This document shows, piece by piece, positions 8,383 to 28,605 of a stretch of DNA of 64,000 nucleotides. Source of the DNA: Cryoendolithus antarcticus (taxonomy: Eukaryota; Ascomycota; Dothideomycetes; Cladosporiales; Cladosporiaceae); NCBI GenBank assembly GCA_002077065.1, contig NAJO01000003.1, forward strand, positions 124,001-188,000, given 5' to 3'. The translations under genes were made by a program, and so were the position numbers. Under the pieces are notes generated by a model, which did not search any database, had not been told where the DNA came from, and saw nothing but the letters and a program-made list of their open reading frames with translations. Within the stretch, counting starts at the first letter, position 1. Each line of letters opens with the position of its first letter.

Positions 8383-8437
8383 CTTAGTCAGGCAAATGAT
8401 GTTAGGAAGCGTTCGAGATTAAGAAAACGATGTCCTG

Positions 8438-9238: not shown

Positions 9239-9262
9239 TGTGCGTTGCTGATGCAGGAACAC

Positions 9263-9744
9263 CAGGGTTTCAATCGGCAGGATGAAAAGACAAGATTGCG
9301 AAAGTCGATTGCCTCAATAGAAGCGTGTAGCTTGTAGACTGTAAGACCTACCTTTGTACCTTTTAAGCCGAATGTCAGAGCAGCGAACAGGCGTCGGAGG
9401 ACGAACGCCAAGACTAAGGTGGGTAGCCCAATCGGGCAGGTCCATAGCGGAGCTTGAGAGGCCTACTGCTGTTGACGCAATACTCACCCTGCACGAGGAC
9501 AAAGAGCCATATATAAGCAGAAGTGGCGTATTTGTTGTCCAGGGACGCTCACCGCTCAGGCCTGCAACGGTTTAGCCTTCACACGGTCTGATCAGCAATT
9601 TGCGACTGCCTTTCGAATGGAGAACTCACTCGCAACGACTCCCATCGATGGCATCGGCTCCCACGCGTGCCACGCATATTTTCGGGCTCCTGACTTGCGG
9701 CATAGTCGGCAGATGTCGCGATCAGAGGGGTTTGCGCCATATCA
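9263..9744. other. Intergenic: SDR promoter side and 3' flank of the RGG gene
   Basis: No coding frame with support. A TATATAAG sits at 9510-9517, about 270 bp upstream of the SDR start. As it is nearly palindromic it could act as a TATA element for the minus strand, but this is weak. Confidence 0.3.
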
Positions 9745-10908
9745 TCACGACGGCGTCGCGCTCTCCACCTGATCAGCCCAAGACTTCCCCTCAGCCTTCG
9801 CATCACTCAACGACGCATCCTCAGTCTTCTTCCCAGGAGCCAGTGCAGGAAAATCCTCCGCCTTCGGCAACCTCGCCACACCCTCCTTCCCACCTCTCCC
9901 ACCTCCCCTCTGCACCCCACCACCCCTCGGCTCCTTATACAAATACTCCCTCCCATCCGTATACCCACTCTCATCCCCCTTAAACCCCTTCCCATCAAAC
10001 TTTCCCCCCTTCCCAAAGTCCTGCTCCTCCTTCTCGGCGTCCCACTCCCGTCCCTCCATAGCCTTCAGCTTCCTCATCCGGTTCTTCTCCCGCTCGCCCA
10101 TCATCTGCTGCCGGTCTTTGCGCTCTGCCTTGGCTTTCTCGGCGGTCATGAGTTTCGCTTTGGATTCTTGCTCGGCAAAGGAGGCAGCGTCTGCTTCGGC
10201 GCGGGCGTGAGCTTCGGTAAGGGAGGCGTTTTTGATGGAGATGCTGGCCATTTTTTCGGCGAGCTCGGAGTCGGTTAGTTTGGGCTTGCGGATGCCGCCT
10301 GTGGCTTGGCGGGAGCCTCGGACTGGAGGGACAGTGGTTTGGCGGGGGCCGGTGGGAGCGTTGGTGGGAGCTTGAGGTGGTGGTGGTGGTGCTGTTTCTT
10401 CAGGCCCAGCTTGTGGCGTTGGTGGTGCATGTGCTTTTGCCTGTGCTCGAGGCTGTTCTGTCGTATTCTGCCCTCCTCGTCCTCTCCCCCGTCCTCGCCC
10501 ACGTGCTCCCTCCCCGCCCCCTCGTCCTCTCTGCTGATTCCTTGGCTGCTCTCTTATCACTTGCTGGACCTCCGGCTGCTCCACTGGCGTGAATTCGTCC
10601 GCAAAGAGATCATCTGGTGGTCGCGTGTGCATGCTCTCATCCACAGGCACCACATCGTCGAATGGATCATCCTGATATGCGCCAGTCTGCGCGAACTCGT
10701 CTATCGTTGACACATCCGGAGGAGGAGCCAGGGGAGAGGCCGGCGCAAAGCTAGGTGCCGCTGCTGAAAGACTGGAGGACGTAGTGGGCCGAGGGGAGGT
10801 CGCACTATTGGAGGGCTTGCGTTGCGCGGCGGCCATTGCTGCTGTCGGTTGTGTTGGAGCTGGAATCGACTGGGTAGGTCGAGGAGCCCATTTTGACGCG
10901 TTCATCGT
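9745..10908 (-). CDS. RGG-rich, low-complexity putative RNA-associated protein
   Basis: An intronless frame of about 387 residues from MNASKWAPRPTQS (10908); an upstream in-frame ATG at 11067 would add an unlikely leader. Residue order: an Ala/Pro/Ser-rich start, an acidic patch with FAQTGAYQDDPFDD, then an RG block (RGRGGGEGARGRGRGRGRGG). A charged helical region follows, beginning KLTDSELAEKMASISIKNAS and continuing through Lys/Glu-rich ERKDRQQMMGEREKNRMRKL. After a second Gly-rich block the protein ends in a DFPALAPGKK motif and a SWADQVE tail. RG/RGG repeats usually bind RNA and are arginine-methylated. The combination recalls ribosome- or mRNA-associated factors such as the Stm1 group, but no named domain is certain. 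It is probably a conserved ascomycete gene. Confidence 0.72.
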   Translation of the reverse strand, partial: TMNASKWAPRPTQSIPAPTQPTAAMAAAQRKPSNSATSPRPTTSSSLSAAAPSFAPASPLAPPPDVSTIDEFAQTGAYQDDPFDDVVPVDESMHTRPPDDLFADEFTPVEQPEVQQVIREQPRNQQRGRGGGEGARGRGRGRGRGGQNTTEQPRAQAKAHAPPTPQAGPEETAPPPPPQAPTNAPTGPRQTTVPPVRGSRQATGGIRKPKLTDSELAEKMASISIKNASLTEAHARAEADAASFAEQESKAKLMTAEKAKAERKDRQQMMGEREKNRMRKLKAMEGREWDAEKEEQDFGKGGKFDGKGFKGDESGYTDGREYLYKEPRGGGVQRGGGRGGKEGVARLPKAEDFPALAPGKKTEDASLSDAKAEGKSWADQVESATPS

Positions 10909-11255
10909 GGGACTCGGGTTGTGAATGCTCGCTGGTGGCGCCTTCCAGGACAAAGCGAGGTACAGGTACCTGTGTGCTGGGCAGGGAGAAGACTCGTTCA
11001 CCAAGCGACGTAGGTTTTGCTCTGTGATGCTGTAGCTATTCGAAAATAGCAGTGCGGTCAATGTCACAGTTGTGCACGGATCGAAAATGGCAGACGTGTT
11101 GCGAAGCTACAGGTACGGAAAGCTGAAGTGAGGTGCTGGCATGAGCTCCACCGCAACTACTCGTAACGAGGACTGAGTTTGGGTCACGTTATAAAGATCA
11201 GAATATAGAGGTAGTTCAAGAACTAAAAATCGACATATAGCCATCCTCCACCTCC

Positions 11256-12878
11256 TCAATGATTGCCCAGATCCCTCGTGCCCCTGTTCCGTCGCCAGAT
11301 CGGGTACCCAGTGCCCTCCCTCCTCCCCTCGATGCCCTCAACAACATGCAGCGCAACGTCACAGCAGCTAGCCGACTCTCCTGGCTCAGGTGGATGGGCA
11401 AACCTCAAACCTATCATGCAATCCCTACGCCTCAGTGGGACATGCCCGTTGGCTTGGGACTGTTGGTTCTCGGGCGGGGTGTTTTCCATCCATGCCAATA
11501 TCCCATTCCAGGGCGCCGCTTCCATCGTTCCGTTCTCCTCGCTAATCGTAAATCCTTCTGCAACATGCGGGAACAACTCGCCTTGGAAAGTGATGAACGG
11601 CCCGACGCCTCGCTCTTGAGCTTCCTCGAGTCGAGCTCGCCAGAGCTCGTGTAAGCGCTTCGCTTCACGGGTGAGACGTATGCCTTCGCGAAGGTGTTGA
11701 CGATCGAATATCTCTCGTGGCCAGGTTGGGTCCTAATCTGGTATTCCGGGATCGTTACCAGCTTCATGTCGTAGTCGCTGGTCCATGTATGTTTCACGAT
11801 GGCGCCACAGAGCAGTGTGTGCGTTTTGCAAGGGCGCAATAGCGTCCCGCATTTCAGCGTCAAAACGCGCGTTGGACGCGGCTCTGGGGGAAAGTCGGAC
11901 GGTGGCAGGTGCACTGGCTATCGAGTCCTCGATCCCAGCGAACAGCTCTGCAGTGAAATCTTCGGTGTCTGCAGGCTCCTCGTGGCCTAAAGGCGGAAAG
12001 GCTATACCTGTCGCAGCTGTATATTCCTGCTCCCGCCAAGCTTGGCGCGACTGTGCGTTAGCGAGCGCAGCTCCCAAACGATTCATATGTTCGAGAGCCT
12101 CGTCTTCCTGCTGCTGTAAGATATAGAGCTCTGCTTCAAGAGCAGCATCGGCGTCCTGACCAGGAACATCATTTTGCTGCAATTCCTCTATTCGATCGAA
12201 GACTTGTTCATACCTTCTGCGCACCGGCCTGTACTCGCGCAAGTGCTCAAAAATGATTTCGCGGCCACGGACCAGCTGGATGGGAATTGTGATAGCGGCT
12301 CGTGCAGCTCCGGCAACTTCTCCAGGAGCAGCATGGGGGCCAGGAGGCCCTCCAGTCGGTGGTGCAGCAGATCTCTGCAGTTGCGTATCAGAGACCGATC
12401 TACCAGTCCCACCAGTGGCAACAGCAGAGAGAGCAGGCTGCGTAGGGGATAGCTGCTGTGTCGCGATGGTAGGTTCGCGCGCCTACCCTCGGAAGTCTGG
12501 TGGCGGCACAGATTTTGACTGGCCGTCAAAGTCGTGGCTGGACCTCTCGTGAATTGGTCTAGTGCCGTCTCTGCTGTCGCTCAGTCTTACGATGCGTCCA
12601 GACTCGTCGACCGTTCGCTTTGGTGGGTCAGAGGACAAGTACCTCGCGTAACGAGCACGAACATCGATACCGCCTCGAACGCGTCCAGGAAGTATTGAGC
12701 GTCCGAAGTACGCCCGGTTGCGTTCCACGTCTCGGTGCTCGTTTCCGACAGGACCAGAAAGTTTGTTGTCGCCCAGTTGCGCGAGAGAAGCTGTCGTACG
12801 ACTGTACAGATAGTCGAGCAGTGAGCCGTGACATCGCTTAGCTGCCATACATAAGCGTGGCTTGCGGATATCGAACAT
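11256..12878 (-). pseudogene. F2 family copy 1: coiled-coil protein with two in-frame TAG codons
   Basis: One minus frame runs from 12878 to the stop at 11256-11258, broken only by TAG at 12483-12485 and 11733-11735. Both sides align with copy 2. The blocks are YLSSDPPKRTVDESGRIVRL, VRGREIIFEHLREYR, a Gln/Glu-rich coiled coil, TAELFAG, RAASNARFDAEMRD, HRETYMDQRLRHEAGNDPGI, then after the stop WPREIFDRQHLREGIRLT, and the tail PPEPGESASCCD. The TAG at 11733 falls exactly on a Trp conserved in the other three copies (LPGW, LPSW, LPDW). No named domain is recognised. The long open frames on either side of single stops point to recent loss of function, or to suppression if the stops are real and read through. 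Confidence 0.72.
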
Positions 12879-13223
12879 CTTCCAGAAGCGTCTGGAGGTC
12901 GAGGAGATCGTGACCGCGTTTCGCGAGCCTCGTGCAGACGTGACATGAACCGGAGACTCAATCGCTGTCGAAATTCGGTGTTTTTCGAAGTGTCTGTTGT
13001 CCTAGGATTGTTTTCTGCCAAGACGGGAGAGTCCCCATTATAGTGAAGTGAAGTGAAGTACCAGTGCCTTCATGCCCGAAACCGCCGAGCTACCGCGCAG
13101 AGACCGAGACGCTTCGCTCGCATGTCGATGAGATCCTGTACATGCTCGTTGCACTCAACGTATGAGATGCGAAGTCAGTTGAAAAACTATATAGCCATTA
13201 CACATCACCTAGCGCAGTGTTCC
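12879..13223. other. Spacer between F2 copies 1 and 2
   Basis: No supported gene. A short run of GAAGT units (13044-13058) is the only pattern seen. Confidence 0.4.
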
Positions 13224-14738
13224 TCAATAAAATTCGAAGATATGCCTCGTCTCACCATTCTTTGACCATTTCGGGAAAGGTCCGCCTCTATTCCGTGCAG
13301 CAACATCATCCAACCTGTCTCCGCCATCATGACACAAGCTGGCTGACTCCCCAGGCTCAGGAATCAGCGCATCGTCCAGGCCATATTGGTAATCTTCCTT
13401 CTTCTGCGGAACGGCTCTGTATGGATTATCTTGTTCTTCAAGGAGATCTTTGCACCACTCGATGATCCTGCCCCTTGGAGGAGTGGCGACCATGCCTCGC
13501 ACTTCACTCTCCATGAAACCCCCGTACAACTCAGGGAACATGATGTGCTGTTCGTCCATGAATGGGCCCAGTCCGCGAGTTCGGGCGATGGCAAAGTTTG
13601 TTACCCATACTTCGTGGAGTTCAGGGGCATAACGAGTGAGTAGCATTCCTTCGCGGAGGTGTTTCCGATCGAAAACATGGCGTGGCCAATCCGCAGACCA
13701 ACCCGGGAGATGCGGATCTCTACCAGCCTCATGCTTGAGCCGTCGGGCTTGATAGGTATCTCGGTGTTGCCATACAGCTTTGAATGCTCTTGCGATCATT
13801 GGAATTTCGGCCCGCATCCTTGCATCGAGAGCAGCGTCCGAGGCTGCCCTCGATGAGACCTCTGTAGGAGGAGGAGGAGCCGGGGCAGGCTACGCGGTAC
13901 CAGTCTCCTCTTCGTCATCGCTCTCAAATTCCGCGAAAAGCTCTGTCCGTGTCCGCTCCATCTGTGACGCAGTCACAGAGCCTGTGGCTGACAACGTGAC
14001 ACCTGTCCGAGCCGCAAAGCTTTCTTCTCGCACCTCTTGCCTTACATGTCCAAGCGCTAAGTTATTTCCTAGTCGAAGTCCATACTTGCGCGCCTCTGCT
14101 ACTCGCCGCCGCAGATCTATCAAATCGGCATCATCGCCGTCCCTGATACCTTCTTGCTCCGCCGTTTGCTGCTCGAGAGCTTCTAGCTGGTCTTCTAGTC
14201 GGGTATTGTTGTCACGAGCTCTCCACCATTGTCGATGAGTCTCGTAGATAATCTCGCGGCCTCGAACAATTAGCGCAGGAATTCGAACGGTAGGTAATGC
14301 GGACTGGGCTGGTGGCGCTTGCGGGACCTGCACGGGCACAGGCCCTCGAGGCTGTGGTGGTGGGAGCGGTTTGCGACGAGGGTCAGGATTCGCGACATGT
14401 CTGTCCGGACTCGGTCTGTTGCTTGCACCGCTTTGACCGACCCGTACGATGCGGCCGAAGCTATCTACTCTTCGCCGCACTTGATTCGAGGCCAGATATA
14501 TTGCGCATCGCTCCCGTGTGGTGCTCCTCCGTCGCTTGCGATTGGCCGATGTTGATAGCCCTGCAGTTCCCGCGGGATTTGGAGGTGCGGAGAGCGGAGG
14601 ACGGACTGTCCCAACACTATGCTCTCGGACAAAGTACGGTGCCACAAATTGGAGCAGGCGGTCGAGCAGGGGGCGAATGTATGGCATCGCTGCCTTCCAG
14701 ACTTGTGCCGAGTCGAGAGATCTACTTGCGCAGCACAT
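13224..14738 (-). pseudogene. F2 family copy 2: near-complete copy with one in-frame TAG
   Basis: The fullest F2 member. From 14738 (MCCASRSLDSAQVWKAAMPY) one frame reaches the stop at 13224-13226, interrupted only by TAG at 13890-13892. Order: a hydrophobic/aromatic start, YLASNQVRRRVDSFGRIVRV, a Pro-rich linker, VRGREIIYETHRQWW, a coiled coil (LEDQLEALEQQTAEQE), an acidic TELFAEFESDDEEE, the stop, SSRAASDAALDARMRAE, then HRDTYQARRLKHEAGRDPHL, PGWSADWPRHVFDRKHL, REGMLLTRYAPELHEVW, ARTRGLGPF, MFPELYGGF and IPEPGESASLCHD. The stop lies in a variable linker. A 39-nt GT...AG stretch covering it keeps the frame but is too short for a normal fungal intron. About 504 codons in all. Function unknown; the look is cytoplasmic or nuclear, with no signal peptide. 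Confidence 0.74.
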
Positions 14739-15336
14739 CTGAGTGTGCTATGAAGATTGCAGATACTGCAACGCAGTTGTTGAGATTGTTCTTTGTATAA
14801 TCGACGCAAACTGTCAGCCCGTCGTGTGCACATGGCAGCATGATGCTCCTTGTCTTTGGGGGATCCCGGCCTATTGTCGTGAAGGACTGCCTCGGTCGGG
14901 GCACTGCTATTGCCGTTATTGTGTAAATGCAATGTATATATCACGTGATATGTGGGAATCCTGCAGTGACTTCGTCGTTGCCAAGGCGTCCGCTTTTGCA
15001 AATGCAATGAAGTGAAGTCGAGACCGGAGATTCGAGAAACGCAGAGCCACACACCTTTCGTGCCACTTGAACTTTCCATCAACATTCGACACCCGCGCTC
15101 CTATCCCCTACAAGAACAAGATGCGCTATCAACTCACAACGTAGTTGATGACATTGCACACAGGCGCGTCGTGCGCACATCGCCTGCTCTACGATGATTA
15201 GCTTCGAACATGCATCAAGGCTCGCCGGGGTGTGCAGGCGCGCATAGCTCTGCAACATCATTAGCTGCTGATCACAATTAGTCTTGAGCAATTTACACAC
15301 TCACCACCTACCACTGGCGCACTCTCCCAAGGCATC
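14739..15336. other. Intergenic, no gene seen
   Basis: Roughly 600 bp between F2 copy 2 and the broken gene at 15337. Short frames on both strands show no family motif or coding bias. Confidence 0.4.
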
Positions 15337-16421
15337 ATGTCGGATGATTCGCAAGGTGAAGCACATCGTGCTGATGAGGCATCGGGTGCTCCTGCCGGTA
15401 CCGGAGTCACTACACTCGTCGCGGATTTTGAGCAGAAGAGCACGTTCAACGACCCTATTCCCGCGCACAGCCTCGCAAACGGGTCGGAGTCGGCATTGTC
15501 GGTGACTCGTGTGGATAAGTCGAGTAGCAAGAGCAAGAGTGAAGCTTTCAAGGCAGACTGGGCAGCTAGGTATGTGCGACCGTCAATCGCGCACCAGCTC
15601 GACAAAGACACGGCTCGCATCACTGAAGCAATTGCGAGTGATGCAAGGCCAAGCAAATCAATCGCTGGTGACTAAGAGGCACCCGATGCTCAGCTCGCCA
15701 AAGAAATCGGCCATGTAAAGGCGCTCGAAGTGAATGTTGGCACTGATGCCACCTCGCTGAAGTCGAGTTCCAACAAGAAGCGTTCTTATGGCGAGAGTGT
15801 GCATGGAGACGCGAAGGCCGAGCCCAGCAAGGATGTCAACAACAGCTCGAGATCGCACAGCCAAGTGCCGACGTCGCCTGGTTCAAGCATTACGCAAAGC
15901 CTAGAGGAGCCTGGCACGCTCATCGACGATCCTCCAAGCTTACAGCCAGCCAGTGCAGGCACATCTCAAGCCATTTCTGATGCGATACCAGGAGCAGATC
16001 AAGACTCCCTTTCTGTCGTCAGCCATCCGAGCTCCATTAAGCGACCGAAGACGTCACGCAATAGCAAGGGGCTAATCAACAGTGCGAGCGATTCGATGAG
16101 ATTAACGCGGTGGTCAGCGCTGACGACACTGAGTCTCCGGGTTCTTTGGATGAGGATGCTGTTGACGGCTTTGGCAGCCCACTGGAGGAGGCGATCGGTA
16201 TTCCGGACAGTTTCCTCGATGAAGATGACAATGAGTTCAAGAATTGGTACGATCTGGAGGAGGACGCAATCAAGAGAGCCAAATCCGGCATCTTTTCCGT
16301 TTACAAAGCGCTATGCCTGCGCCAAGCCTTAAGGAGACAGACCACCCCTCACAAGAACGTCTATCAGACGGCGAGGGGGAGAGTGTGGATCGGAACTCAC
16401 TTTTACCTGATCCTTGACTGA
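15337..16421 (+). pseudogene. Broken Ser/Asp/Glu-rich gene with one stop and one frameshift
   Basis: ATG 15337 (MSDDSQGEAHRADEASG) opens a low-complexity frame that stops at TAA 15673-15675. The same frame then continues past 15730 with the same Ser/Lys/Asp composition (EAPDAQLAKEIGHVKALEVN). Near the GGGG at 16068-16071 the coding signal moves back one base into an open frame from 16065 (ANQQCERFDEINAVVSADD), leading to the acidic LDEDAVDGFGSPLEEAIGIP and NWYDLEEDAIKRAKSGIF. Nothing matches a named domain. I found no intron that both removes the stop and keeps the frame. It may form one gene with the glycine-rich segment downstream. Confidence 0.5.
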
Positions 16422-16600
16422 CTCCATCCCAATAATGGCGGTGTTCGAGCACGGAGAATGCTCACCGAGGGGGGCAAGGCTCTCGCAAACTTGAGGATAC
16501 GGCATGCTGTGACGCACGTCATCATCGTTGAGCCAGGGAGGAAGCTCAGGAAGTGGCTCACTCAGAACTCCATCGTCCTCTACGTGTCTGGAATGGGTAG

Positions 16601-17253
16601 AACGGCCGCGGTCTGCGACGTCGACGAAAGGAGACTATCCATTTCGGCGAGAGAGTGTGGCGCCTGGAGATGAAGGAAGATTCCTGTATTGTGCTGGACG
16701 AGAGGCTGTCTCGGAGATCCGGGCAACGCGTGAAGGGTCTCACCTATGCCCTCATTGGTAGGAGACTTCCGCCAAATCAACCTGTCCCCGACAAACTCGA
16801 CAAGCAGCGAATAGATATCGTCGGCTTACAGATCGATCCTCCGCCTGAGAGGTGCAGCAGACAGCAGGCGATCCTGGACCGAATAACTCACGCAATCGTC
16901 CGCTGCAGTCCAGCAAGCAGCACATTCATGAACAGGGACAGCAAGAGTATCGGAAAGGCGGGAAATCTAAGCAAGCTGGCAACAGATATGACCACAACGC
17001 GGGGACTCGGGGCAGCCAAGGCGGTTCGGGTGGATATCGTGGGGGCCAGGATCGTCCTTGCGGCAAGAGGCAAGGCGGTTTCAGACAGCGCCCTAATGGA
17101 CCAGGCAATTCACGCAAAGATCTCTTTCCTGACTACAGAAAGCGTCCTGATGGCAACCGTCATGCTGGAGGCGATCGTAGATATGACGACGATCCTAATG
17201 GCAGGCAAGGCAGTTCGGGTAACGGCGGTTTCGGTGGAAGGCGTCGCAACTAG
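16601..17253 (+). pseudogene. Fragment with Arg/Gly-rich C-terminus, frames displaced
   Basis: In frame 2 from 16601 there is a basic start (LRRRRKETIHFGERVWRLEM) followed by KGLTYALIGRRLPPNQPV and LDKQRIDIVGLQIDPPPE. The likely coding frame then shifts at about 16845 to a Gly/Arg/Gln-rich tail: KGGKSKQAGNRYDHN, GGSGGYRGGQDRP, DYRKRPDGNRHAGGDRRYDD and GGFGGRRRN. The tail resembles RGG regions of RNA-binding proteins. The start of this piece and its link to 15337-16421 are unclear; it could be a later exon of that gene or a separate remnant. Confidence 0.4.
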
Positions 17254-18021
17254 CTAGAGCACAGATGAGAGATCAGGTTAACACCGACAGGCAGTATATC
17301 ACTGGTAGAACCCGAGATGGACAATGAGTATGGGATGTACCAGTGCGGTTGAGTGTGGTGGTGTTCAGTGAGAATGATGAAAGAAGGGGTGAGAGAGAAA
17401 ATGAGGTGAGGTCAGAGCATCGGCGCTAGTGTAGTGGAACCGAAACTATAAATTGCAGTCCCATTCCAAGGTTCCACCTTTGTTGATGTTCGTAACGATG
17501 CAACACACATGGTGACGAAGACCTGCATTCCGTTGTGCTCTTAGCAAGGTCGTTGCTGATACGCCCCATGATATATCATACTCCGTCGTCAGGCCACCGT
17601 GTCGCATTCCGGGCACGCAAGATGTAGACCAATCTTACGGCGAATTCACAAATGAGCTCGAACTACACGCGACAAGGCCGCAAAGGAGCATCGTCGAGTG
17701 GACAGGACTTTGAAGAATATGAGGGAACTAGATTGACCATCGCATCGTAGGGCTGGACCGTGTTAGCAGGAGAAGAATGTCATTGTTCCAGTAGCTGCGA
17801 TAGAGACAATAGTCGCCCGGTGAGTAATTCCACGCTGAGGTTGCATCACAGGGACTGCTATTGGCTGTCTGCGGCTGAGGGCATAATCTAGAATTCCTGG
17901 CTGCCAGCGCTCTCTCTGGCGCCTCTTGGGGCCCTTCAGGACGTGGACCCATGGCACTATATCGAAGCTCAGCCTGCAGTATGCTGGACTGCTCCTTCAG
18001 TGCCAAGACCTCTGGTACGAG
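17254..18021. other. Intergenic and decayed 3' end of F2 copy 3
   Basis: No supported gene. The part next to 18021 should hold the missing C-terminal half of F2 copy 3, but none of the three minus frames shows FPELYGGF- or PEPGESAS-like blocks. Confidence 0.4.
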
Positions 18022-18451
18022 CAACAGCCATTCGAACTTCCAAGGACTGTTCAACCTCAATGGCGTATCGTGTTCTGCGCATACCTTCTTGGAAGTGCTG
18101 GACATCGAACTCAGACCTTGTCCAGTAGCGTGACCAACTCGGTAGTCCAGAATCTTCTCCTTGCTCGTGCTTGTGCCTCTGCTCCGCATACATGTCTCGA
18201 TGTTCGTGTATGGCAGTGATAGCCGCAGAGATATCGGGGTCATGATCTCGTATCTCTGCATCTAGTCTGGCGTTCGAGGCAGCGCGGGACGAGATCTGTA
18301 GAGATGAACCCTCAGGAGCATTGACTTCCGATAGGTCTCGGTGACCCGCGGTCAGCTCTTTGTGAAGCGCGCAAGCTGCAAAGCGTCCTGGGGGGTAGTG
18401 TTCGGCGATCGACTCTGAGCTGTTGCTGGGGTCTGTTGAGGTATTGTACAC
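18022..18451 (-). pseudogene. F2 family copy 3: truncated copy
   Basis: The frame from 18451 carries the central F2 blocks in order: SSRAASNARLDAEIRD, HEHRDMYAEQRHKHEQGED, GLPSWSRYWTRSEFDVQHF, QEGMRRTRYAIEVE and ARTRGLG. It then runs into unrelated residues and a stop at 17969-17971. The GRIVR and VRGREII blocks upstream and the PEPGESAS tail are missing or scrambled. The Trp that is a stop in copy 1 is intact here. A fragment, too short to act as the full protein. Confidence 0.68.
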
Positions 18452-19424
18452 AACTCTTGCGGGTCTTGCTGGTCCTGGTCGCTTTTGGGGTCACTTCTTG
18501 GTCGTCTGGCTGACAGATCGGGCGTGTTTCACGTACGGTCTCAGTGATAAGCCGGTCCAAGATCTGACGTCTCAAGCCTCCCCAGGCTCCCCATCTCGCA
18601 ACGCGTACAGACCAAAGTCTCCGCGCGACGCGGAGAAGGGACATCTCCGCGTAGGAAGCAAGCACTAGACCCGCATGTTGCTATTCAGAGGAGAAGATGA
18701 AGAAACAGAGATGAAGAATCTACCGCGACTCGAACATTACATAAGTACCTGCTGGCTGATGTGACTACCGCATGGCGGGATCACCACCATCTCGTTTCAC
18801 TGCTCATCTAGAGCTCGACATATCGACTGGTTAAGTCGCCTACGATACCGACGCAGACCTGCACAATGCACACGTTGAGTTAGCTCACCACTCACCAGGA
18901 TCCACTCATGCCAGTTCGGTGTGGGTATGGGGGAAGACGATGCTGGATGTAAAGCGGCAGATCCTGCTGTAGTCTTGGTGAGGTCTGAGCCAATGGACGT
19001 CGATCTGGCCACGAAAGTGGAATACCGCTGCTTCGAAGGGCTTCTGCATCGGGAACTCATTCGAGACTCACGACGCTTCCCTCATGACCTAGTTCCGGGT
19101 GTCATGGACTCACGGCAGCATGAGCCGCTCACTGCTCGGCTTTCATGTCTTCGCCACCAGATCCTGACTTACGGCGCTCAGATGCAATATCGCCCAACGT
19201 GGCTTCTTGCGCTAGCGATCCAGCGCACGTCGACCCCTCATTGCTGCTCGTTTAAAGAGGCATAAATTTGCGATATGCTAGTCGTGCAGAGATAGGCACT
19301 AGTCATCGATCGCTTCCAAAAGCCTGCGCACTCCGTCGAGGCTCAATTTTGCACTGCCAGCCATGCCCACATCTCAGACCATAGCCGCCCGCGCATACTC
19401 ATCGTTTGCTCCTTTGACCCGCCC
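18452..19424. other. Intergenic, no gene seen
   Basis: Nearly 1 kb without a convincing frame. The longest stretch on the plus strand (18921-19265) has no recognisable motif and I do not call it. Confidence 0.35.
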
Positions 19425-20238
19425 TCATGACTTCTCCTCCAGCAGACCGGAATCTATGTGGTAGAGAAACCCTCTCAACGTCATGTCCTTCTTGATCAGA
19501 GGATGCTCGCGAAGATACTGCATATCTTCGGTCACGCTTTCGCCCAATCTATTTGAATTTTATTAGCAAGATGCATTCAGTGCACGGATTGGAGAAGCTA
19601 CTGACTGTGCGATGGGGTGGAACGACAATTCCTCAACCCGTGCAGTCTCTTCAGGAAATCTGTCTTTCAAAGTGGTCTTGAGAGAGACATCGGAGTTGTG
19701 CGTGAGTCCGCAGTCTGACGGACACGTCAGTTGCACGATCGCGCCGGAGACCACGCGCAGCTTACCGGTGTGATGGACAAGTAAGATTGTGTCAACACCA
19801 AACGCAGCATCAAGACCGACAATGTTCGTGATGGCGTGCTTGGCGCGGCCTCCGATCACACGCACCACGGGCAGTGCTGCAAACATCAGCACGTGATACC
19901 CAGCTACGCAACATATCAGACGCTTACCGATGGGATCGAAGCCTGGCTGACGGAAGCCGAGGAAGGTCTCCGGGACGATACGCGGGTCTACGCACGTCAC
20001 TGGGCAGGTCAGCGTGGCCAGTGAGTGGTCTGGCCTAATCTGCTGATGACCTACCGACTAGAACTCCGGTGCCACGACGCAGCTTACCATCTGCGCCATG
20101 GAGCAGCGGCATTGGCTTGTGGTTCTCGGCCGCATACTTTCTTGAAGATGTCAGCGCGCTGATCAAGATCCATCAGGAGTGGCCTCCTTACTTGTTGCGT
20201 TCGACGAGACTCGCGGCCAGAGCGTTTGCTTGCGACAT
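19425..20238 (-). CDS. Beta-class carbonic-anhydrase-like protein, six exons
   Basis: The small beta-carbonic-anhydrase fold interconverts CO2 and bicarbonate with a zinc held by Cys-Asp-x-Arg and His-x-x-Cys. My model is exons 20192-20238, 20088-20140, 19928-19999, 19766-19876, 19606-19714 and 19425-19548, 171 residues, close to the usual length of minimal beta enzymes. The introns (51, 88, 51, 51 and 57 nt) are all GT-AG and several have GCTGAC branch sites. The spliced protein starts MSQANALAASLVERNKKYAA and carries VTCVDPRI (Cys, Asp, Arg), RVIGGRA, then LLVHHTDCGLTH (His, Cys). It ends KKDMTLRGFLYHIDSGLLEE. Two exon joins rebuild active-site motifs exactly, which strongly supports the splicing. 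Proteins of this minimal type are often annotated as CA-like; activity is not certain. Confidence 0.85.
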
Positions 20239-21274
20239 GCTGGGCGGCACTGATGGCGTTGAAGAGTGCTTGAGTGAATAAGAACAAGTGATGGCGGCGA
20301 GTTCGTGGACACTATTTAAGTGGGCGACTGCGAGACCAGATCCAGCCCTCATTAGGCAAGTGCATTCCGATTTCCCTTCCATGCTGCACTCCATCCCAAT
20401 GGCGTCTCGTCACACTCAATGCTGCGTCACCTGCGGGTCTCTTGCGCTCACCGCTCGATGCTGTGAACAGCTGTCACCTTGATCACTAATCTGCGACTGT
20501 CGGCTTGGGTGCAGCTTGGTCATCCGTCTCTGCAAGCGAGCTCCCATTGACATCACGGCGTCGGTCTCGCCTGCAGTGGGGATTCAGGCAGCTGCCTCAA
20601 TGCCTCAACGACAGATGATCCCAATCGCGTCGAGGAGCGGCGTAACAGGTGTCCGCTGTTACCTGGTCTTTACTAACAAGCCATTGGCGCAAATCGTCAC
20701 CGGGTAAAAGCATTGAGCAGATGCGACATCGTGCGTCGGTGCCGTGAATGAATAGTGTGTCGCCTGTGGAACCCGCAGGTCTTGGCTCGCCATCGTCGAC
20801 GGCTGGTTGATCACCCCGACAGCTCTCGGCCGATGGCACCTGCCCGTACACGCTGTCTAGCCGACGCTCGTACGCCAGCTCTGCATTGAGACAGTTTGCT
20901 GACCGTGCAGAGATGGGAAGCTGAGTAGATGGCAGACATCTGCTTACCTACTCACCTGAACCATCACCTCGGTCGAGTGTCAACATTAGTCTTTTAACGA
21001 TTGCTCTCTATCATCAGCGAAGACATGCTAGAGACTGCACAGATTCAAGCCCGTGGTTGTGTTAGTTGCACGGTCATTATAGCGATGTCGCTGCAACTAT
21101 GCTCGGTCACCGCTCGACAAGCTCACAAAGCACACTCCCATGATATGTCGTGCTCCGCGGCACATGCGTTGATCCGCACACTTATAGAGAGGCCTAGTAG
21201 ACGCTCTCTGCAGCAGAATGAACTTGACAGTGATCCCAAATCCGCATCGTCTTCAGGTACAGCATTTGATCACA
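20239..21274. other. Intergenic between divergent CA-like and reductase genes
   Basis: About 1 kb separating two divergent starts, so it probably holds both promoters. No supported coding frame or clear repeat. Confidence 0.4.
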
Positions 21275-22345
21275 ATGGCAGCATCCGACGTCTTACTCCT
21301 GACAGGAGGTACAGGCTTCGTGGGATTTGCTACACTCAAATACGCCCTTCAGAAAGGCTATCACGTCCGAGCAGCAGTACGAAGCCAAGCAAAAGCCGAT
21401 GCACTTCACAAGAATCCCGTGCTTGCCTCGTTCGCCGACAGACTCACCACCATTGTCGTACCCGACATCCTTGCTAGCAATGCCTATGACGAAGCGGTGA
21501 ATGGCGCCAAGTACATTGTCCATGTCGCGAGTCCTATCCCGCAAGGCGATGCTATGGCCAACGCCGCTGTTGAAGGCAACACGACCGACGTCGAAGCTCT
21601 GCTTGTCAAGCCTGCGGTGCAAGGGACTCTCAACATCTTGAAGTCTGCCAAGGAGCACTTGTCGGTGAAGCGCATAGTCATCACCAGCTCCATGGTCACT
21701 GTCCCGTCCTTTGGCGTACTGGCGGGTTCGGAGACAACAGACAAGGTCTACGGCCCTGATGATCGTGCAGATGAGATCTCACCTCCATGCCCAGTCGAAA
21801 TCGTCGCCTATGTGCAAGCCAAGATCGCCGCACTCAATGCTGGCGACAAGTGGGCGAAAGAGAATAAGCCTGTCTTCGATGTGATAACCATATACCCCTC
21901 TGTCGTCGGCGGCCGTCATGACAACGCTACATCCGTAGCGGATCTTCTGGCGACGACGAACGCTGCCTTCTTGGCGGTCGTCCGCGGTCAAGAAGCTGTC
22001 GAGACGTCTCGTCCCCATATTATGGCTGTTATAGACGTCGACGATGCCGCCGAAGCTCATATCGAGTCTCTGCGAGAGGATGTCGAGGGCGGACAAGCGT
22101 TCTTGCTCACAAACCGTGGTGGAGATCTGGCATGGAATGATGCGAAGGCGATCGTGAATAAGCACTTCTCTGAAGCTGTCGAGGATGGCAGACTACCTAA
22201 TAATGGCGTCAGTGAGCCGAAGTGGTGGATAACGACTGATGGTGAGAAAACTGAGAAGACTTTCGGGAAGTTGAAGAGCTTCGAGGAGACGATCGTGGGG
22301 ATCGTTGAGCAGTATCTGGAGTTGCTGACAAAGGAGACGAAGTGA
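21275..22345 (+). CDS. NAD(P)-dependent reductase of the dihydroflavonol/cinnamoyl-CoA/Gre2 type
   Basis: An extended SDR (epimerase-like) of about 356 residues without introns. Near the N-terminus it has the Rossmann motif VLLLTGGTGFVGFATLKYAL, then VRAAVRS (NADP-binding Arg), HVASP, the Ser triad position in VITSSMVTV, and catalytic YVQAK. I use ATG 21275 (MAASDVLLL) because it precedes the glycine motif closely; an upstream in-frame ATG at 21218 adds 19 residues without a targeting look. Fungal relatives (Gre2, methylglyoxal or ketone reductases) reduce aldehydes and ketones. The actual substrate is not deducible. Confidence 0.9.
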   Translation: MAASDVLLLTGGTGFVGFATLKYALQKGYHVRAAVRSQAKADALHKNPVLASFADRLTTIVVPDILASNAYDEAVNGAKYIVHVASPIPQGDAMANAAVEGNTTDVEALLVKPAVQGTLNILKSAKEHLSVKRIVITSSMVTVPSFGVLAGSETTDKVYGPDDRADEISPPCPVEIVAYVQAKIAALNAGDKWAKENKPVFDVITIYPSVVGGRHDNATSVADLLATTNAAFLAVVRGQEAVETSRPHIMAVIDVDDAAEAHIESLREDVEGGQAFLLTNRGGDLAWNDAKAIVNKHFSEAVEDGRLPNNGVSEPKWWITTDGEKTEKTFGKLKSFEETIVGIVEQYLELLTKETK

Positions 22346-22366
22346 TCAGTACCTCGTCTTGTACGT

Positions 22367-23857
22367 CTAGACTTGGTACCCTTTTTTGAACACCATCATC
22401 TGTGGCTTGCCATCCTCATCGTACCACGTCCTGAACATGCCACCGCAGTTGAAGTCTGCTACCACGGTACTCGTTCCGCTCGCACCATCTACCTCAAGTC
22501 CGATGATGCCGCCCTCGCCTTCACCAGTCTTGCGCCATCGATCTTCTGCGCTCTGCTGCAGCATACCATTCAAGCCTGCCACGGCCGTGACAGACGCTTG
22601 GAGCGAAGTGTGCGAGTCTGATGATGCTGCGGGTGAAGAAGGCGCTTGTGATTGAAAGCGCACGATTGCAGCAGCAGTGCGAGCCGCATTGAGTCGTAGG
22701 AAGCTGTCGCCATTTCCTGTGCCTGACATAGCTACTGCGCGATAGCTAGATCTGGCCAGGGCGACCTCGTCCTCAGACTGTGATGGTAAGCGTAGATAGC
22801 CTGCTAAGCTAGGCAGACAGTCGCTCAATATTTGAGTCAGAGGCGATGATGCGTTGTATGTTCGTGAGCTCAATGCTGATGAGACGGTCCACTCCTCTGC
22901 CCAGAACCCAGCACCAATCGTGGGCGTGTCGCCAATCCGGCCGGGAAGCTTATTGGTGATACCGCCTGTCGATGTAGCAACGCATGTGACGCCTTCGCTG
23001 TCCAGTACGCAGCACCCGACGGTACCTTGCGGGAGGTACTCCTTGCTATCCCACGTAGGGTTGCTGAAGGGTTCGCTCGTGATAGTCACATCACCCATGT
23101 CTAGAGTACTCTCGTCATGGCCGTTGTCGATCGCTCCTCGATTTCGATCGTAAGTAGCATCATCACTGCTCTTACCAAGTGCTCTGCGATGCTCCGCCCA
23201 TCGCTTCTTCGTCCAAAAGTAGCTCGGCTTCACAAGTTCCAGTCCCCAATCCGATGCCAGCTTCTCACAGCTCTCGCCAGCAAGCTGCACATGTCCTTGA
23301 GCTCCGCCACCATCATCCTCGTTGCCCCTGATCAGCATCTCCTTGGCAAGCAAGATGGGGTTCTTGACATGGCTGAGCTTCATGACACCGACGCCACGCT
23401 TGCGATAGCCTCGCGAGACCATGACGCTGGCTTCCAGCTCCTGCGTGCCGTTAAGTGTGAAGACTGCACCATGGCCGGCGTTGAAGAGAGTGTCGTTCTC
23501 AAGCAGTGAAACTACATAGGTCGCGACATCTATGGCCTTGGCTCCTGGCTGACGAAGTCTGCTATTCGCGCTGTCAAGTATCGAGAGCAACGATGCGCGA
23601 TACGCTTTGTAGGCATCTGGAGGTAAGTTCTGGCGGGTAATATTGCCACAGCCGCCATGGATGATGATGTTTGGCGTCACAGATGCGGGTTTGGAGGACG
23701 AGAACATGTTGGCCACAGCTGCTGTGGTGAATTGGGAGCAAGGAGATAACGCGCTGCGCAGACGACTAGAGGTGAGCCCAAGCCAACGATGAAAGGGTCT
23801 GCATCTGATATCACTTACAAAAGATGTCGGACTGCCTTTCCTGCTGAACAAAATCAC
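22367..23857 (-). CDS. Isoaspartyl peptidase / L-asparaginase (plant-type, Ntn hydrolase)
   Basis: A type 2 asparaginase-family hydrolase that matures by self-cleavage before a Thr. The conserved start NIIIHGGCGNI and FNAGHGAVFT are followed by GVGVMKLSHVKNPILLAKEM. The cleavage site is EYLPQGTVGCCVLD, where Thr becomes the N-terminal nucleophile, then VATSTGGITNKLPGRIGDTP and GAGFWAEEW. ATG 23857 gives 496 residues with a 50-residue basic leader; ATG 23707 (MFSSSKPASV) gives the usual enzyme start. The gene is convergent with the upstream reductase, 21 bp between the stops. The C-terminal part is longer than in bacterial enzymes and includes a Ser-rich insert, as in many fungal members. Confidence 0.9.
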   Translation of the reverse strand: MILFSRKGSPTSFVSDIRCRPFHRWLGLTSSRLRSALSPCSQFTTAAVANMFSSSKPASVTPNIIIHGGCGNITRQNLPPDAYKAYRASLLSILDSANSRLRQPGAKAIDVATYVVSLLENDTLFNAGHGAVFTLNGTQELEASVMVSRGYRKRGVGVMKLSHVKNPILLAKEMLIRGNEDDGGGAQGHVQLAGESCEKLASDWGLELVKPSYFWTKKRWAEHRRALGKSSDDATYDRNRGAIDNGHDESTLDMGDVTITSEPFSNPTWDSKEYLPQGTVGCCVLDSEGVTCVATSTGGITNKLPGRIGDTPTIGAGFWAEEWTVSSALSSRTYNASSPLTQILSDCLPSLAGYLRLPSQSEDEVALARSSYRAVAMSGTGNGDSFLRLNAARTAAAIVRFQSQAPSSPAASSDSHTSLQASVTAVAGLNGMLQQSAEDRWRKTGEGEGGIIGLEVDGASGTSTVVADFNCGGMFRTWYDEDGKPQMMVFKKGYQV

Positions 23858-24428
23858 CCATTGAGGAAGGTCACGTCGAGCTGCGACCAGCTTACGTAAC
23901 AGGCCTTTCTCCTTTCACATTTTCAGATTCAACCTGTGATTTTACACGCTTCTACCTAAATGGTCAACGCCATTCTTTGTTTGCACGACAGCATTGACAT
24001 TCCGACCCACTCCGTTGATTTGCCACGATGAATAGTGCGCGTTGCTTCGACCTGTTTGCACCCCTCCGGATGACTCCAGACACGCGGAGCGTCATCTTCA
24101 CGCCCTCGGTGCTACTAACACCCATTATGGCCCTATAACTGAGATAAGTCACGAACAGATGGGCGACACGCACCATCATATCCAAAGTAGGGCGAGACAC
24201 AGACGCGCTCTAACTCTGAGATCGTGATGTCGCATAGGTGAGTGCGTCATTCTTACGTAGGCCTCTGTAACATGGTGGGTAACTGCTGTCCGGGATGTCT
24301 CCTTCACTTTACTACTTCCTATTTGAGTCACAATTTTAGCCGACGGCTCGCGGTGCTCCGCGTAACTTCCGTCCCTCCAACACTTCTAGGCTTGCGTACG
24401 CGCAACACTCGGATACTTACGTACTGCG
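23858..24428. other. Intergenic, promoter side of the asparaginase-family gene
   Basis: No supported coding frame. I looked for F2-type blocks here as an upstream extension of copy 4 and found none. Confidence 0.35.
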
Positions 24429-25184
24429 ATGCCTCCTCTACCGGCACTCTGGACCATATGGATGCCGCGAGCTATTCAAGATTGTGCTGTCATGATTTTG
24501 GACGCATTACGCTTACGCCGAACAGTGCGACCTACCATCGTTACACCACCGTCAGTATGGCGACCGCAATCTGGGCGAATTGGGCGCCGTCGCAAAGTCG
24601 TCTTACCAAGCGTATCTACGCGCTGTCGCCAGTACATGCAGCGACAGGCCGAACAGCTACGAAGCACGAAGTCAAAGTATACGTCTCTTGTCAACTACGA
24701 GTCTGGTCTAGATGCGGGGCACCAAGATCGATCTGATCATTCGCTTCCCACGGATTGCGGAACACCGAGTAATGACGACAGCTCCTCTCGTCAAAATGCT
24801 GCGCCTCCTGGGAGGCTGATAGATGAGACTGCCAATCGACATCATTCGACTGAGCCTACCACTAACCTAGCGTTGCAAGTTGTGTCGGGCGGCGAACAGG
24901 TAGTCATAGACATGTGCTCAAGAACCACCTCAAACCTCCAGCAGCGGAGGAAGCCAGAGCTATTGAGACTCACAGATGGGGCTACTACGATCAATGGCTC
25001 AAACATAAGTACTGGCGAAGACCCAGGCCTGCCCGACTGGTCGCCTGTCTTGACGCTAACGGACTTCGATCTCAGCCATCTCAAAGAAGGCATGCTCTTG
25101 ACCGGAGAACTGCTGTACACGGAGAAATGCTTTAACGAAGCTGTAGCAGAGCTCAGGCGAAGAGGCTTGATGTGTCCAACATAG
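24429..25184 (+). pseudogene. F2 family copy 4: opposite-strand, diverged copy with a frameshift
   Basis: The plus frame from 24429 ends TGEDPGLPDWSPVL, FDLSHLKEGMLLTG, AVAELRRRGL, matching the centre of the F2 family. The preceding block lies in another frame (EEARAIETHRWGYYDQWLKHK, about 24945-25010), so one extra base sits near 25005-25015 (CATAAGTACTGG). A TAG at 25182-25184 follows the RGL block. Beyond it the third frame holds RVRDLLVDQD, which resembles CKDLLEEQD of copy 2, up to a TGA at 25572-25574. The first 150 or so residues do not align. This is the only F2 copy on the plus strand and the most diverged. Confidence 0.6.
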
Positions 25185-26196
25185 TCCAGTGGTTTCCCGA
25201 GTGAAGTTGGAGAGTACCCAGAGTGCGTAGAGGACGACATGAAGACCAATATCCAACTGTTCAGTATTATCCCCTGGATTGAGTCCAATCCCCGAGGTTT
25301 GAGTATGCAGGCGTGAGAGCGTAGTGTAAACCAGCCGAAGAGCCCGGTCTCGCAGGATCGGGAGCATCAGCCCCGGGGTGAGCCTGAGCCATGGGAGAGT
25401 GAGAGTACTAGAGCCTCGCCTGGCGGCTCGAGAAGACGACTTGTAGTTATTTGTCAGCCACCTGGCCGGCTACCGGGTCGACTGGCTTGGACTTGGAATG
25501 AGGATGCGCGGGAACGGGTGCGAGATCTGCTGGTAGACCAGGATACCACGCTTGCGTTGGATGGATGGGATTGAGGATGCGGCACTGTAGACGGTACAAC
25601 AGAACGCGAGCTCCCACCGCTACCTCACATCAACATTCTTCGATTTCCGATATCGTTCCATGCACATAGCGTAAATCCTGGTGTCCAAACCCATATGCCT
25701 GATGTCAATGCCAACTCGGCAACACTTGCCCATTTCAGCTCTTTCTCTCGGCAGATCCTCGCACCGCCGGCTCTTGAACCGCCCCACCGCGATCTACTCG
25801 GTTTTGGCACATCACCTGCTCCTGCACAACTCGAGCTGTGCACTTCACTGTTACACATGCCACGAGGCTGTCGCCAAACGCTGTGCGACCTCTGACTGAC
25901 TCCTGGAACACGCGACAAGCTGCGTGACAGGCTGCGACACCACGCGATCGGGCTTGCATACACCGCCTCGCCTGCACGAGGAAGCCACGAGGGGAGGGGC
26001 ACTGCGACTGTGATATAGCACTGACGGTGGAGGCCAGCGAGACTAACTGCAGCTGAGGAGCTGAGGGAATTACTTTGGGGTAAGCGACTGCACAGTGAAG
26101 GCAAGCGCAACAGAGGTGGACCACACGAAGAAGGTACAAGCGGCGGCAGCCCCAGCACCAGCAACGACACGGTGATTAGCACCGACCACTGCAGCC
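25185..26196. other. F2 copy 4 remnant and TCO89 promoter region
   Basis: The first 390 bp contain decayed F2 sequence; the rest is the 5' flank of TCO89. A minus-strand open stretch at 25625-26248 has no coding signature and I leave it out. Confidence 0.4.
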
Positions 26197-28605
26197 ATGC
26201 CAGTCGCCTCACCACAGCCGCAAACGTCCGCCATGTCGCCCTCCCCACTCTTCCCCGGCAGTGGTGGCTTGCGCCCGAGTCTCATGAAGCGCCACTCGAG
26301 TCAGTTGAGTAATGGCTACATTCGACACAGCTCTCGCGAGGTCGCATCACCCGGCTCCAACCCCAGCGAAGCACCACTCCAGCCACGCCATGCTGTCCGC
26401 CCGAAGACTCACGCTCGTGTCGTGCTCCCACGGAATCATAGCAGCGGTCGCAACCTCGCGAAGATGGCGCGGCAAGCTGCCAATGGTCCTGCACATGGTC
26501 CTGCACATGGTCCTGCCGGTGCGCAAACCCATGTGCGTCAGAGGAGTCATGAGGGCGACACGGAGATACGGCTACCTGGCAGTCTCAACGAGAGTGTTGG
26601 GGTCCCGAACCCTCCCATCCGGCGCAACATGACCAGCTCGCAGCTACCACGCAACACATCACATACGAAGCTGAAGAAGAACTACTCACATGGTCAGCTG
26701 CAGCGGCTGGGCTCTGGGAAGAATCTGGCAGCCCTTGGATCGACGCAACGAGCGCCTCCTTCACCTGGACTTAGGCCAAAGTCAAAGCGACCGAAAAGCG
26801 CGGACTTCGGCAAGGTCGCGGCGGAGAAGGACTTGCACCAACAGGAAGTCGAGCTCGCAGAGCAGCTGCAAGCCAAGCGCGATGGTCCGAAGAAGGTTGG
26901 CTTTGCAGTCGGCAGCTCGGATGACACTAGTGATGCCGAGGAGGTACCGGAGATGGAAGGCAGTGGAATGCAGGAAGACGAGTGGACTGAGGAGAGTGCG
27001 AGCGCGAGTCCGTATAGCACGCGACAGAACACTGCCGACAATTCGAGACGACCTAGTGTGGTGCAAGACCGGCCCTCGGGAAAGGTAGAGATGGCCAGGG
27101 CGCTGGCTAATGAGGTTGGTCTCGCGATGGCCGCCGAGGTCAAGGCGCAGAGAGAGGGCAAGGGGCAGGAGGCTGAGGCAGATGGAACGCCAGCAGCGAG
27201 CTACGAGGATGAAGATGCAGGTGCTGAGGCACGGGCAGATAACGATGACGATGAGGAGGCGGAGGAGGAGGAGGAAGAGGACGATGATGATGATGAGGAG
27301 CATGAGGAACAGAGCGAAGAGGACGATCAGCCTAGTCCTCGAAGCATGCCACGAGTCCAGCGACGTCCGAACACCCAACGCACAGCACAGGACGAGCTAC
27401 CCTCACGACCAGCTCAGCACCAGCGAGTAGTCTCGACTTCAAAAGAGCATGCCAATCCTACTACCCAATTCTTACGCCGCAACAGCGCACAACTTGCAGC
27501 GCCAGCTCGCATCAGCAACATCACAGCCCTCGACGATGTCCACAGCAAGCGGTCGTCCCCAGACGCCTCGATGGACTCCTCCCGCAACCTCTCACAAGAT
27601 CCTGCCGATCAGGACGAGCTAGTCTCGCGCTTCCTTCCCTCTGGGTCGCATCCGGCAACCAGCAGCGGCACCAATACGATGACTCAGAACACACCGAAGC
27701 ATAGCCACTTCCACACTCCGGAAGAAGATTCTACGCTTGCAGCACAGCACCGCGGTAGTATTAGTGGTAGAGTACCCATCAGTCCGGGTGGCAGCACAGT
27801 CTCCGGCTCCTCTGGCGCTGCGACCCCAGCCCTAGGCCGCTCAAGGACCGAGCTCAAGATGCTACAAGAGAAGGCCATCGCGGAGATGGAGTCGCTCCGC
27901 CCTCCTGCAGTACCAGCGCACGTCTATGACCGGCGAAACGAGAGTTTAAAGTCTTACCTCAACCTCGCTGCAGCGTACACCGCAACTGCGGAGGGCTCGA
28001 ACTCGATCTCGGGATTGCCTATGGAGAGGCTAGCGAGTTCAACGCTGGGCCCGGAGATCTTTCAGGGTCGTTTCAAAGCTGTGCGCACGGAGCTGAGGGT
28101 CGTGCAGAAGTTTCGTGATCCTTTCGCCGAGAGTATCGCGAGGCTGCAGAGGTGCAAAGGGTTAAGAGGAAAGCTGGGACTTCCGCCGCCGACCGGACCA
28201 GGCTCGAAGCCTCAGCTGCAGCTTGGAAGTAGAGGTCAGACTGCTGCTCAAGGCACGGCAGCTGCGTTGAGAGGGAGTAAGAGCGCCGTCTCGCTGCCTG
28301 TCAGGGATCGTCGACCTCCTGAGATGGCTGCCATCGGCACACCCCCCACGGCAGCATCTCAGCATCTACCAAACCATACCGCGACTTCAGCTTCGCCACC
28401 TAAGAATTCGATCAGTCCTGCGAAGCCCGCGCTCACAGTCGGCAGCAGGGGCGTGGTGGCAACAAGAACGGGATCGCAGAGACGCGGTGTGTCTTTCGCC
28501 GGTGCGCCGCCTATTGTCAAAGAGCCGAGTGCGGCGGAGGCGGAAGGCGGAGCTGAGGCTGTTGCTAGGAAGTTGTGGGATAGTGTGCTTGAGGGTGGGT
28601 CTTGA
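26197..28605 (+). CDS. TCO89: TORC1 subunit TCO89-like protein
   Basis: Tco89 is a fungal-specific subunit of the rapamycin-sensitive TOR complex 1 at the vacuole, linking nutrient state to growth and stress responses. The 802-residue intronless frame is mostly disordered. Diagnostic pieces are the N-terminal LRPSLMKRHSSQLSNGYI, the basic RNTSHTKLKKNYSHGQLQRL, and the VGFAVGSSDD segment. A very acidic tract of about 30 Asp/Glu lies near residues 345-380. Near the C-terminus comes RTELKMLQEKAIAEMESL with GPEIFQGRFKAVRTELRVVQ and KFRDPFAESIARLQR. These match the order seen in ascomycete TCO89-domain proteins as I remember them. A short coding repeat (HGPAHGPAHGPA) lies near residue 100. The start is the first ATG; one 12 codons later is equally possible. 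Confidence 0.83.
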   Translation: MPVASPQPQTSAMSPSPLFPGSGGLRPSLMKRHSSQLSNGYIRHSSREVASPGSNPSEAPLQPRHAVRPKTHARVVLPRNHSSGRNLAKMARQAANGPAHGPAHGPAGAQTHVRQRSHEGDTEIRLPGSLNESVGVPNPPIRRNMTSSQLPRNTSHTKLKKNYSHGQLQRLGSGKNLAALGSTQRAPPSPGLRPKSKRPKSADFGKVAAEKDLHQQEVELAEQLQAKRDGPKKVGFAVGSSDDTSDAEEVPEMEGSGMQEDEWTEESASASPYSTRQNTADNSRRPSVVQDRPSGKVEMARALANEVGLAMAAEVKAQREGKGQEAEADGTPAASYEDEDAGAEARADNDDDEEAEEEEEEDDDDDEEHEEQSEEDDQPSPRSMPRVQRRPNTQRTAQDELPSRPAQHQRVVSTSKEHANPTTQFLRRNSAQLAAPARISNITALDDVHSKRSSPDASMDSSRNLSQDPADQDELVSRFLPSGSHPATSSGTNTMTQNTPKHSHFHTPEEDSTLAAQHRGSISGRVPISPGGSTVSGSSGAATPALGRSRTELKMLQEKAIAEMESLRPPAVPAHVYDRRNESLKSYLNLAAAYTATAEGSNSISGLPMERLASSTLGPEIFQGRFKAVRTELRVVQKFRDPFAESIARLQRCKGLRGKLGLPPPTGPGSKPQLQLGSRGQTAAQGTAAALRGSKSAVSLPVRDRRPPEMAAIGTPPTAASQHLPNHTATSASPPKNSISPAKPALTVGSRGVVATRTGSQRRGVSFAGAPPIVKEPSAAEAEGGAEAVARKLWDSVLEGGS

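What the first reader, a model, noticed from the sequence alone, without database searches (positions are those of the whole stretch)
11256..25184. F2: four dispersed copies of an unknown coiled-coil protein family, every one damaged
Copies at 11.3-12.9, 13.2-14.7, 18.0-18.5 (minus) and 24.4-25.2 kb (plus) share ordered blocks: GRIVR, VRGREII, coiled coil, RAASNARLDAE, HRxxYxxRxKHExGxDPxLPxW, FDxxHLxEGM, ARTRGLG, PEPGESAS. I do not recognise the family. The local expansion followed by decay suggests a rapidly turning-over accessory family, possibly of mobile or conflict-related origin.
Basis: partly seen in the sequence, partly recalled or inferred. Interest (0 to 1): 0.82.

Follow-up and report, generated by a model that had tools for sequence, protein, structure and literature searches.

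The report
Decayed orphan gene array, duplicated fungus
A rock-dwelling Antarctic fungus carries a small local array of an undescribed gene family, present twice because its genome is doubled, and every copy found has been broken; related genes that still read through were found in only two other isolates.

Summary
Four homologous copies (A 11256-12878, B 13224-14738, C 17969-18644, minus; D in 24429-25433, plus) align far above chance and all are damaged. The window is Cryoendolithus (Rachicladosporium) antarcticus contig C73; its colinear counterpart on C66 carries second copies of A, B and C, also damaged, by different lesions. Five protein searches of this 47-Mb genome show no further copy. 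Three marker families occur in pairs, so the genome is doubled, as papers already suggest. A, B and C had diverged before the doubling. B was under purifying selection (dN/dS 0.16), A less (0.31, C-terminal part), so those lesions are late. The protein database gave relatives only in Rachicladosporium sp. CCFEE 5018 and Oleoguttula sp. CCFEE 5521, with stop-free models up to 499 aa; no Pfam, PHROGs or PDB-sequence match. No terminal repeats, no dispersed copies, conserved synteny: the 'mobile, rapidly turning over' reading is not supported. This is an older local array of a lineage-restricted orphan family being lost in a doubled genome. Biochemical role unknown; an oligomeric coiled-coil scaffold is the best guess, weakly held.

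The parts
11256..12878 (-). Copy A, about 540 codons in one frame with two in-frame TAG (12483-12485 and 11733-11735)
   Evidence: counterpart on C66 within L009:6440-8209 (frameshifts and a TGA)
13224..14738 (-). Copy B, 504 codons in one frame from the listed ORF start (a start like that of its relatives lies near 14687), one in-frame TAG at 13890-13892
   Evidence: counterpart L009:5307-6152 lacks its N-terminal part
17969..18644 (-). Copy C, reduced to N-terminal and central pieces; about 0.47 kb internal and 0.34 kb near the 3' end missing relative to C66
   Evidence: counterpart L009:2113-3648 has one in-frame TAG
24429..25433 (+). Copy D, divergent remnant; the clear match is the central motif at about 25011-25169
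23699..25706 (.). Stretch holding D, about 0.2 kb instead of 2.0 kb in the C66 counterpart; only its own place matched in the genome
14082..16276 (.). Stretch (5' half of B, intergenic, 5' part of the next gene) missing from C66

Best explanation
An orphan gene family restricted, as far as the databases searched show, to three isolates of rock-inhabiting fungi. A gene of about 470-500 codons, apparently without introns, was duplicated locally into A, B, C (and a more divergent D) before the genome doubled. Doubling gave a second array on C66. A and B stayed under purifying selection for much of the time since; then each copy was inactivated separately by nonsense changes, small indels or larger deletions, as in ordinary loss of duplicated genes. 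Shown: homology, doubling of the region, lesions, constraint on A and B. Inferred, not shown: the protein is an intracellular oligomer with a short N-terminal helix, a basic stretch with a conserved RRVDxxGRIV motif, a proline-rich linker, a coiled coil, an acidic linker, a conserved helical region (HExGxDPxxPxW ... FDREHLREGM ... RGLGPF) and a tail with PEPGESAS. It most likely works as a coiled-coil scaffold or adaptor (about 0.3) that C. antarcticus no longer needs.
For: Homology and damage. C66 is colinear (inverted) over window 1-30574 with gaps; main blocks 81-89% identical, one 1.4-kb block 72%. Doubled genome: PGK 2 loci, adenylosuccinate synthetase 2, TIM 2 close and 2 more distant; 47.4 Mb and 18,781 genes (PMC5502844, main text part 1 of 2) against 24.6 Mb and 10,933 genes for Rachicladosporium sp. 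CGMCC 3.30118 (PMC12560822, passages); papers speak of possible genome duplication for this species (PMC12560822, passage) and of massive gene duplication in Rachicladosporium (PMC7325674, passage). Trees: A, B and C are separate groups, each holding the C73 and the C66 copy; window A groups with CCFEE 5018 apart from C66 A (93/94; 88/93 to 97/97 in three re-runs). dN/dS: B 0.16 (bootstrap 0.10-0.24), A C-terminal part 0.31 (0.23-0.42). All 3 copies on C66 are damaged too. Stop-free relatives P0005 (499 aa) and P0007 (467 aa).
Against: dN/dS of the A N-terminal part (0.52, 0.30-1.23) and of C (0.56, 0.27-1.18) does not show constraint. Of the five relatives outside this species P0004 stops short of the C-terminal part, P0006 is marked partial and lacks about the last ten residues, P0007 lacks part of the coil, and P0003 is a fused B-tail/A model, so only P0005 is complete without reserve. 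Lesions were not checked against reads or transcripts (41x MiSeq assembly). The B halves on either side of its TAG are long open frames and could still be made separately. The structure model is poor (mean pLDDT 44.8), and a crude heptad score peaks in the coil region in P0006 and P0007 but at residues 287-292 in P0005, so the scaffold role rests on little.
Confidence: 0.8

Rival explanations
1. A mobile or selfish element gene that expanded locally and then decayed.
For: Several damaged copies close together; the D stretch is present in C73 only.
Against: No copies found elsewhere (the tool calls its counts lower bounds), no repeats at the copies, same order in both subgenomes, constraint on A and B, no confirmed relative in IMG/VR or the prokaryote genome collection (two-motif scans) and none in PHROGs for 3 relatives.
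Confidence: 0.04
2. The genes are not dead: stops are removed by introns, editing or readthrough, or the split halves act as separate proteins.
For: All three stops in A and B and the one in C66 C are TAG (C66 A has a TGA; D a TGA and a TAG); B has open parts of 282 and 221 codons; B pair dN/dS 0.16.
Against: The stops lie at different places in different copies and the counterpart has sense codons there; P0003, P0004 and P0005 carry tryptophan at the second A stop; C, C66 A and C66 B have deletions or frameshifts that recoding of one codon does not explain. No intron prediction was run; by eye a GT-AG pair of 39 nt spans the B stop, which is short for an intron.
Confidence: 0.1
3. An allorecognition, killer or other conflict gene family lost when the process it served was lost.
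For: Narrow distribution, local copies, loss of every copy found in one species.
Against: No Pfam domain in the family and only ordinary enzymes or unknowns among nine neighbouring frames scanned; low dN/dS in B is unlike fast-evolving conflict genes (recalled).
Confidence: 0.06

Closest known systems
Hypothetical proteins B0A51_10456 and B0A51_08179 (Rachicladosporium sp. CCFEE 5018), LTR95_017708, LTR95_004475 and LTR95_001201 (Oleoguttula sp. CCFEE 5521)
   Same: Same family and motif order; 467-499 aa for four of the five
   Different: No stops; B0A51_08179 (451 aa) is a fused model of B tail and A, LTR95_017708 and LTR95_004475 end early
B0A48_10496 and B0A48_10497 (C. antarcticus, contig of 780,984 bases, the length of C66)
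   Same: NCBI models of C66 B and C66 A, the counterparts of the window copies
   Different: Annotated as shorter genes (244 and 337 aa)
Genome doubling in black fungi such as Hortaea werneckii (PMC7767062, PMC7765829 and PMC8856086, passages)
   Same: Large genome with paired gene copies, by duplication or hybridisation
   Different: Here both copies of each of three paralogues are damaged; the passages seen say nothing on gene loss of this kind

Membership tests
Transposable element gene | Multiple dispersed copies in the genome | tested here: not met
   Five protein searches and two DNA searches of the own genome find copies on C73 and C66 only; other rows at E 0.17-6.9. The tool states that counts are lower bounds.
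Transposable element gene | Terminal repeats or target-site duplications | tested here: not met
   At 18 nt or more: no direct repeats and one 18-nt, 89% inverted pair (12809-12826 / 19127-19144) in 10900-19200; none in 23500-25900. Ends of the D stretch: no clear insertion footprint by eye.
Any Pfam family | Score above the curated cut-off | tested here: not met
   5 window pieces (E up to 1) and all 7 database relatives (E up to 10): best E 0.011 (DUF982, 16.1 bits, cut-off 22.2), none over its cut-off
F-BAR, SMC or PspA-like helical folds | Fold similarity well above unrelated helical proteins | tested here: inconclusive
Homeologous gene pairs after genome doubling | Colinear second copy with synonymous divergence like the neighbours | tested here: met
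   Colinear block. dS: A C-terminal part 0.45, B 0.49 against 0.44-0.72 for five neighbours; but A N-terminal part 0.17, C 0.24 and the sixth neighbour 0.26 are lower
Pseudogene | Lesions plus lack of product | tested here: inconclusive
   Lesions in 7 of 7 copies found; expression not testable here
Spore-killer or allorecognition families | Killing or incompatibility phenotype | not testable with these tools
   none

The most novel reading that the evidence does not exclude
A gene family born in this fungal lineage served a process special to rock-inhabiting Antarctic fungi (self-recognition, mating or a stress response). Its separate death in both subgenomes of one species marks the loss of that process.
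Probability: 0.08. Interest if true: 0.6.

Novelty: new member of a known kind. Interest (0 to 1): 0.3.

Why it matters
It describes a protein family known so far only as hypothetical proteins of three isolates, and a clear case in which several paralogues, doubled with the genome and some of them long under selection, were all inactivated separately. That makes it a usable test case for how doubled fungal genomes shed dispensable functions. It also warns that database models from such loci (244 and 337 aa here) can be remnants.

Tried and rejected
Known family: Pfam, PHROGs for 3 relatives and Rfam over 8000-27000 (69) gave nothing over threshold. PDB by sequence: no hit for P0005 at E up to 10 and 15 hits at E 0.47-7.1, in the coil region, for the profile. 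Folds: PDB second look with generic helical hits; viral library with one match at E below 0.001 (8.6e-4, probability 0.60, TM 0.12, rmsd 32.7, an unnamed protein), taken as meaningless on a low-confidence model. Absence from the fold lists is no proof of a new fold. Plasmids by tblastn with a piece of B: none. Viral and prokaryotic contigs: 48 and 124 pattern matches, none confirmed.

RIP (repeat-induced mutation): C-to-T and T-to-C differences between C73 and C66 are about equal (649 and 624), ts/tv 1.57, and two of the three TAG in A and B differ from the C66 codon by a transversion, so RIP does not explain the lesions in general.

N-terminal targeting helix: the hydrophobic moment beats shuffles clearly in 2 of 7 sequences (12/500 and 8/500; others 72-471/500), so not claimed.

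Tree: one search warned that long branches (B and C groups) meet; re-runs leaving out C, B, or window C alone kept the A group and its inner order with support that moves. The order inside B is unresolved and the deep order of A, B and C is not claimed.

A resemblance to larger orphan families of Dothideomycetes is recalled only; the profile search (7 proteins at E up to 1; only the 7,996 candidates sharing most words were scored) did not show it. Distant relatives without shared 5-residue words may be missed.

In print: a search for five locus tags and one for CCFEE 5521 with genome returned no paper in this library.

Full report
What and where. The window lies on contig C73 of a genome of 46,965,068 bases in 149 contigs. 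Protein hits on a contig of 780,984 bases, the length of C66, are named B0A48_10496 and B0A48_10497 of Cryoendolithus antarcticus, the former Rachicladosporium antarcticum (PMC10739867, passages; Cladosporiales). ARAGORN found no tRNA in the window and Rfam nothing in 8000-27000.

The observation. Copies A, B, C and D are homologous: pair scores of 37-239 bits against a best of 20.8-25.4 bits in 60 shuffles per pair. A profile made without D finds D at E 3.5e-9. A and B are nearly complete frames broken by two and one TAG; C has two deletions; D is a remnant.

Second array. C66 carries a colinear inverted counterpart of window 1-30574, with gaps. It holds C66 A (frameshifts, a TGA and a 3' frameshift), C66 B (N-terminal part missing with a stretch that also takes the start of the next gene) and C66 C (one TAG). 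D has no counterpart there. So 7 of 7 copies found are damaged, by lesions that differ between counterparts. Five protein searches found no further copy (other rows at E 0.17-6.9; limits 0.001, 1 or 10 in the others).

Age. PGK and adenylosuccinate synthetase are each found at two loci and TIM at two plus two, fitting a doubled genome. The genome paper gives 47.4 Mb and 18,781 genes (PMC5502844, main text part 1 of 2), against 24.6 Mb and 10,933 genes for a Tibetan Rachicladosporium (PMC12560822, passages). The idea is not new: PMC12560822 offers genome duplication as a possible cause of the large R. antarcticum genome (passage), and PMC7325674 mentions massive gene duplication in Rachicladosporium (passage). 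In the tree (11 rows, D left out) A, B and C are separate groups, each holding both subgenome copies, so the local duplication is older than the doubling; this stays so in three re-runs with rows left out, as far as the rows kept can show. Window A groups with the CCFEE 5018 protein (93/94; re-runs 97/97, 88/93, 90/93; end branches 0.011-0.013), while C66 A is at 0.17. So the two subgenomes parted before these isolates did; autopolyploidy and hybrid origin are not told apart. Order inside B is unresolved.

Selection. Between C73 and C66, B has dN/dS 0.16 (0.10-0.24; 281 codons), the A C-terminal part 0.31 (0.23-0.42; 334 codons), the A N-terminal part 0.52 (0.30-1.23; 129) and C 0.56 (0.27-1.18; 107). 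Six neighbouring frames gave 0.083, 0.155, 0.085, 0.096, 0.045 and 0.41 (Nei-Gojobori, 200 bootstraps, frames taken without intron models, stops left out). So B was kept as a protein until late and A less strictly; C may have died earlier (inference). Window B, window C (only 35% of columns filled) and C66 A have the longer branches of their pairs, as expected after inactivation; window A, although broken, has a short one, so its second stop is recent: P0003, P0004 and P0005 have tryptophan there.

Relatives. Three searches of 5.8 billion proteins returned 1, 4 and 7 proteins, all from C. antarcticus, Rachicladosporium sp. CCFEE 5018 and Oleoguttula sp. CCFEE 5521. P0005 is complete at 499 aa; P0007 is nearly so; P0004 and P0006 end early; P0003 joins the B tail to A, which suggests the same B-A order in CCFEE 5018 (inference; that assembly was scaffolded on this one). 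No family library matched over a cut-off.

Anatomy and likely role. From the alignment and the weak model of P0007: N-terminal helix, basic stretch with RRVDxxGRIV, proline-rich linker, long helices that look like a coiled coil (138-209), acidic linker, a conserved helical region (261-350, block pLDDT 66-88), then a poorly predicted tail with PEPGESAS. Charge is positive in the first 150 residues and mostly negative after. A scaffold or adaptor role is the most likely guess (about 0.3), resting on helix content only.

Verdict. The mobile or fast-turnover reading is not supported; loss of a lineage-restricted family in a doubled genome is.

Noticed in passing
window 8438-9262 and its C66 counterpart: The neighbouring short-chain dehydrogenase gene has one in-frame stop in its C66 copy while the window copy is open: damage is not confined to the family.
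   Followed up: partly
window 12485-12878 vs L009 about 6550-6970: The N-terminal part of A is unusually alike between subgenomes (dS 0.17 against 0.45 further on); possible gene conversion between homeologs.
   Followed up: no
window 14082-16276; C66 near 239300: About 2.2 kb missing from C66 brings the broken B copy up against the next, oppositely oriented gene.
   Followed up: partly
P0007 (LTR95_001201) and window 13227-14738: An isolate named Oleoguttula (Teratosphaeriaceae) has a B-type protein 82-86% identical to the window and C66 B pieces, although C. antarcticus is in Cladosporiales; the isolate's name may be wrong or the genes exchanged.
   Followed up: no
P0003 (B0A51_08179): Database gene model that fuses the tail of B with A.
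   Followed up: partly
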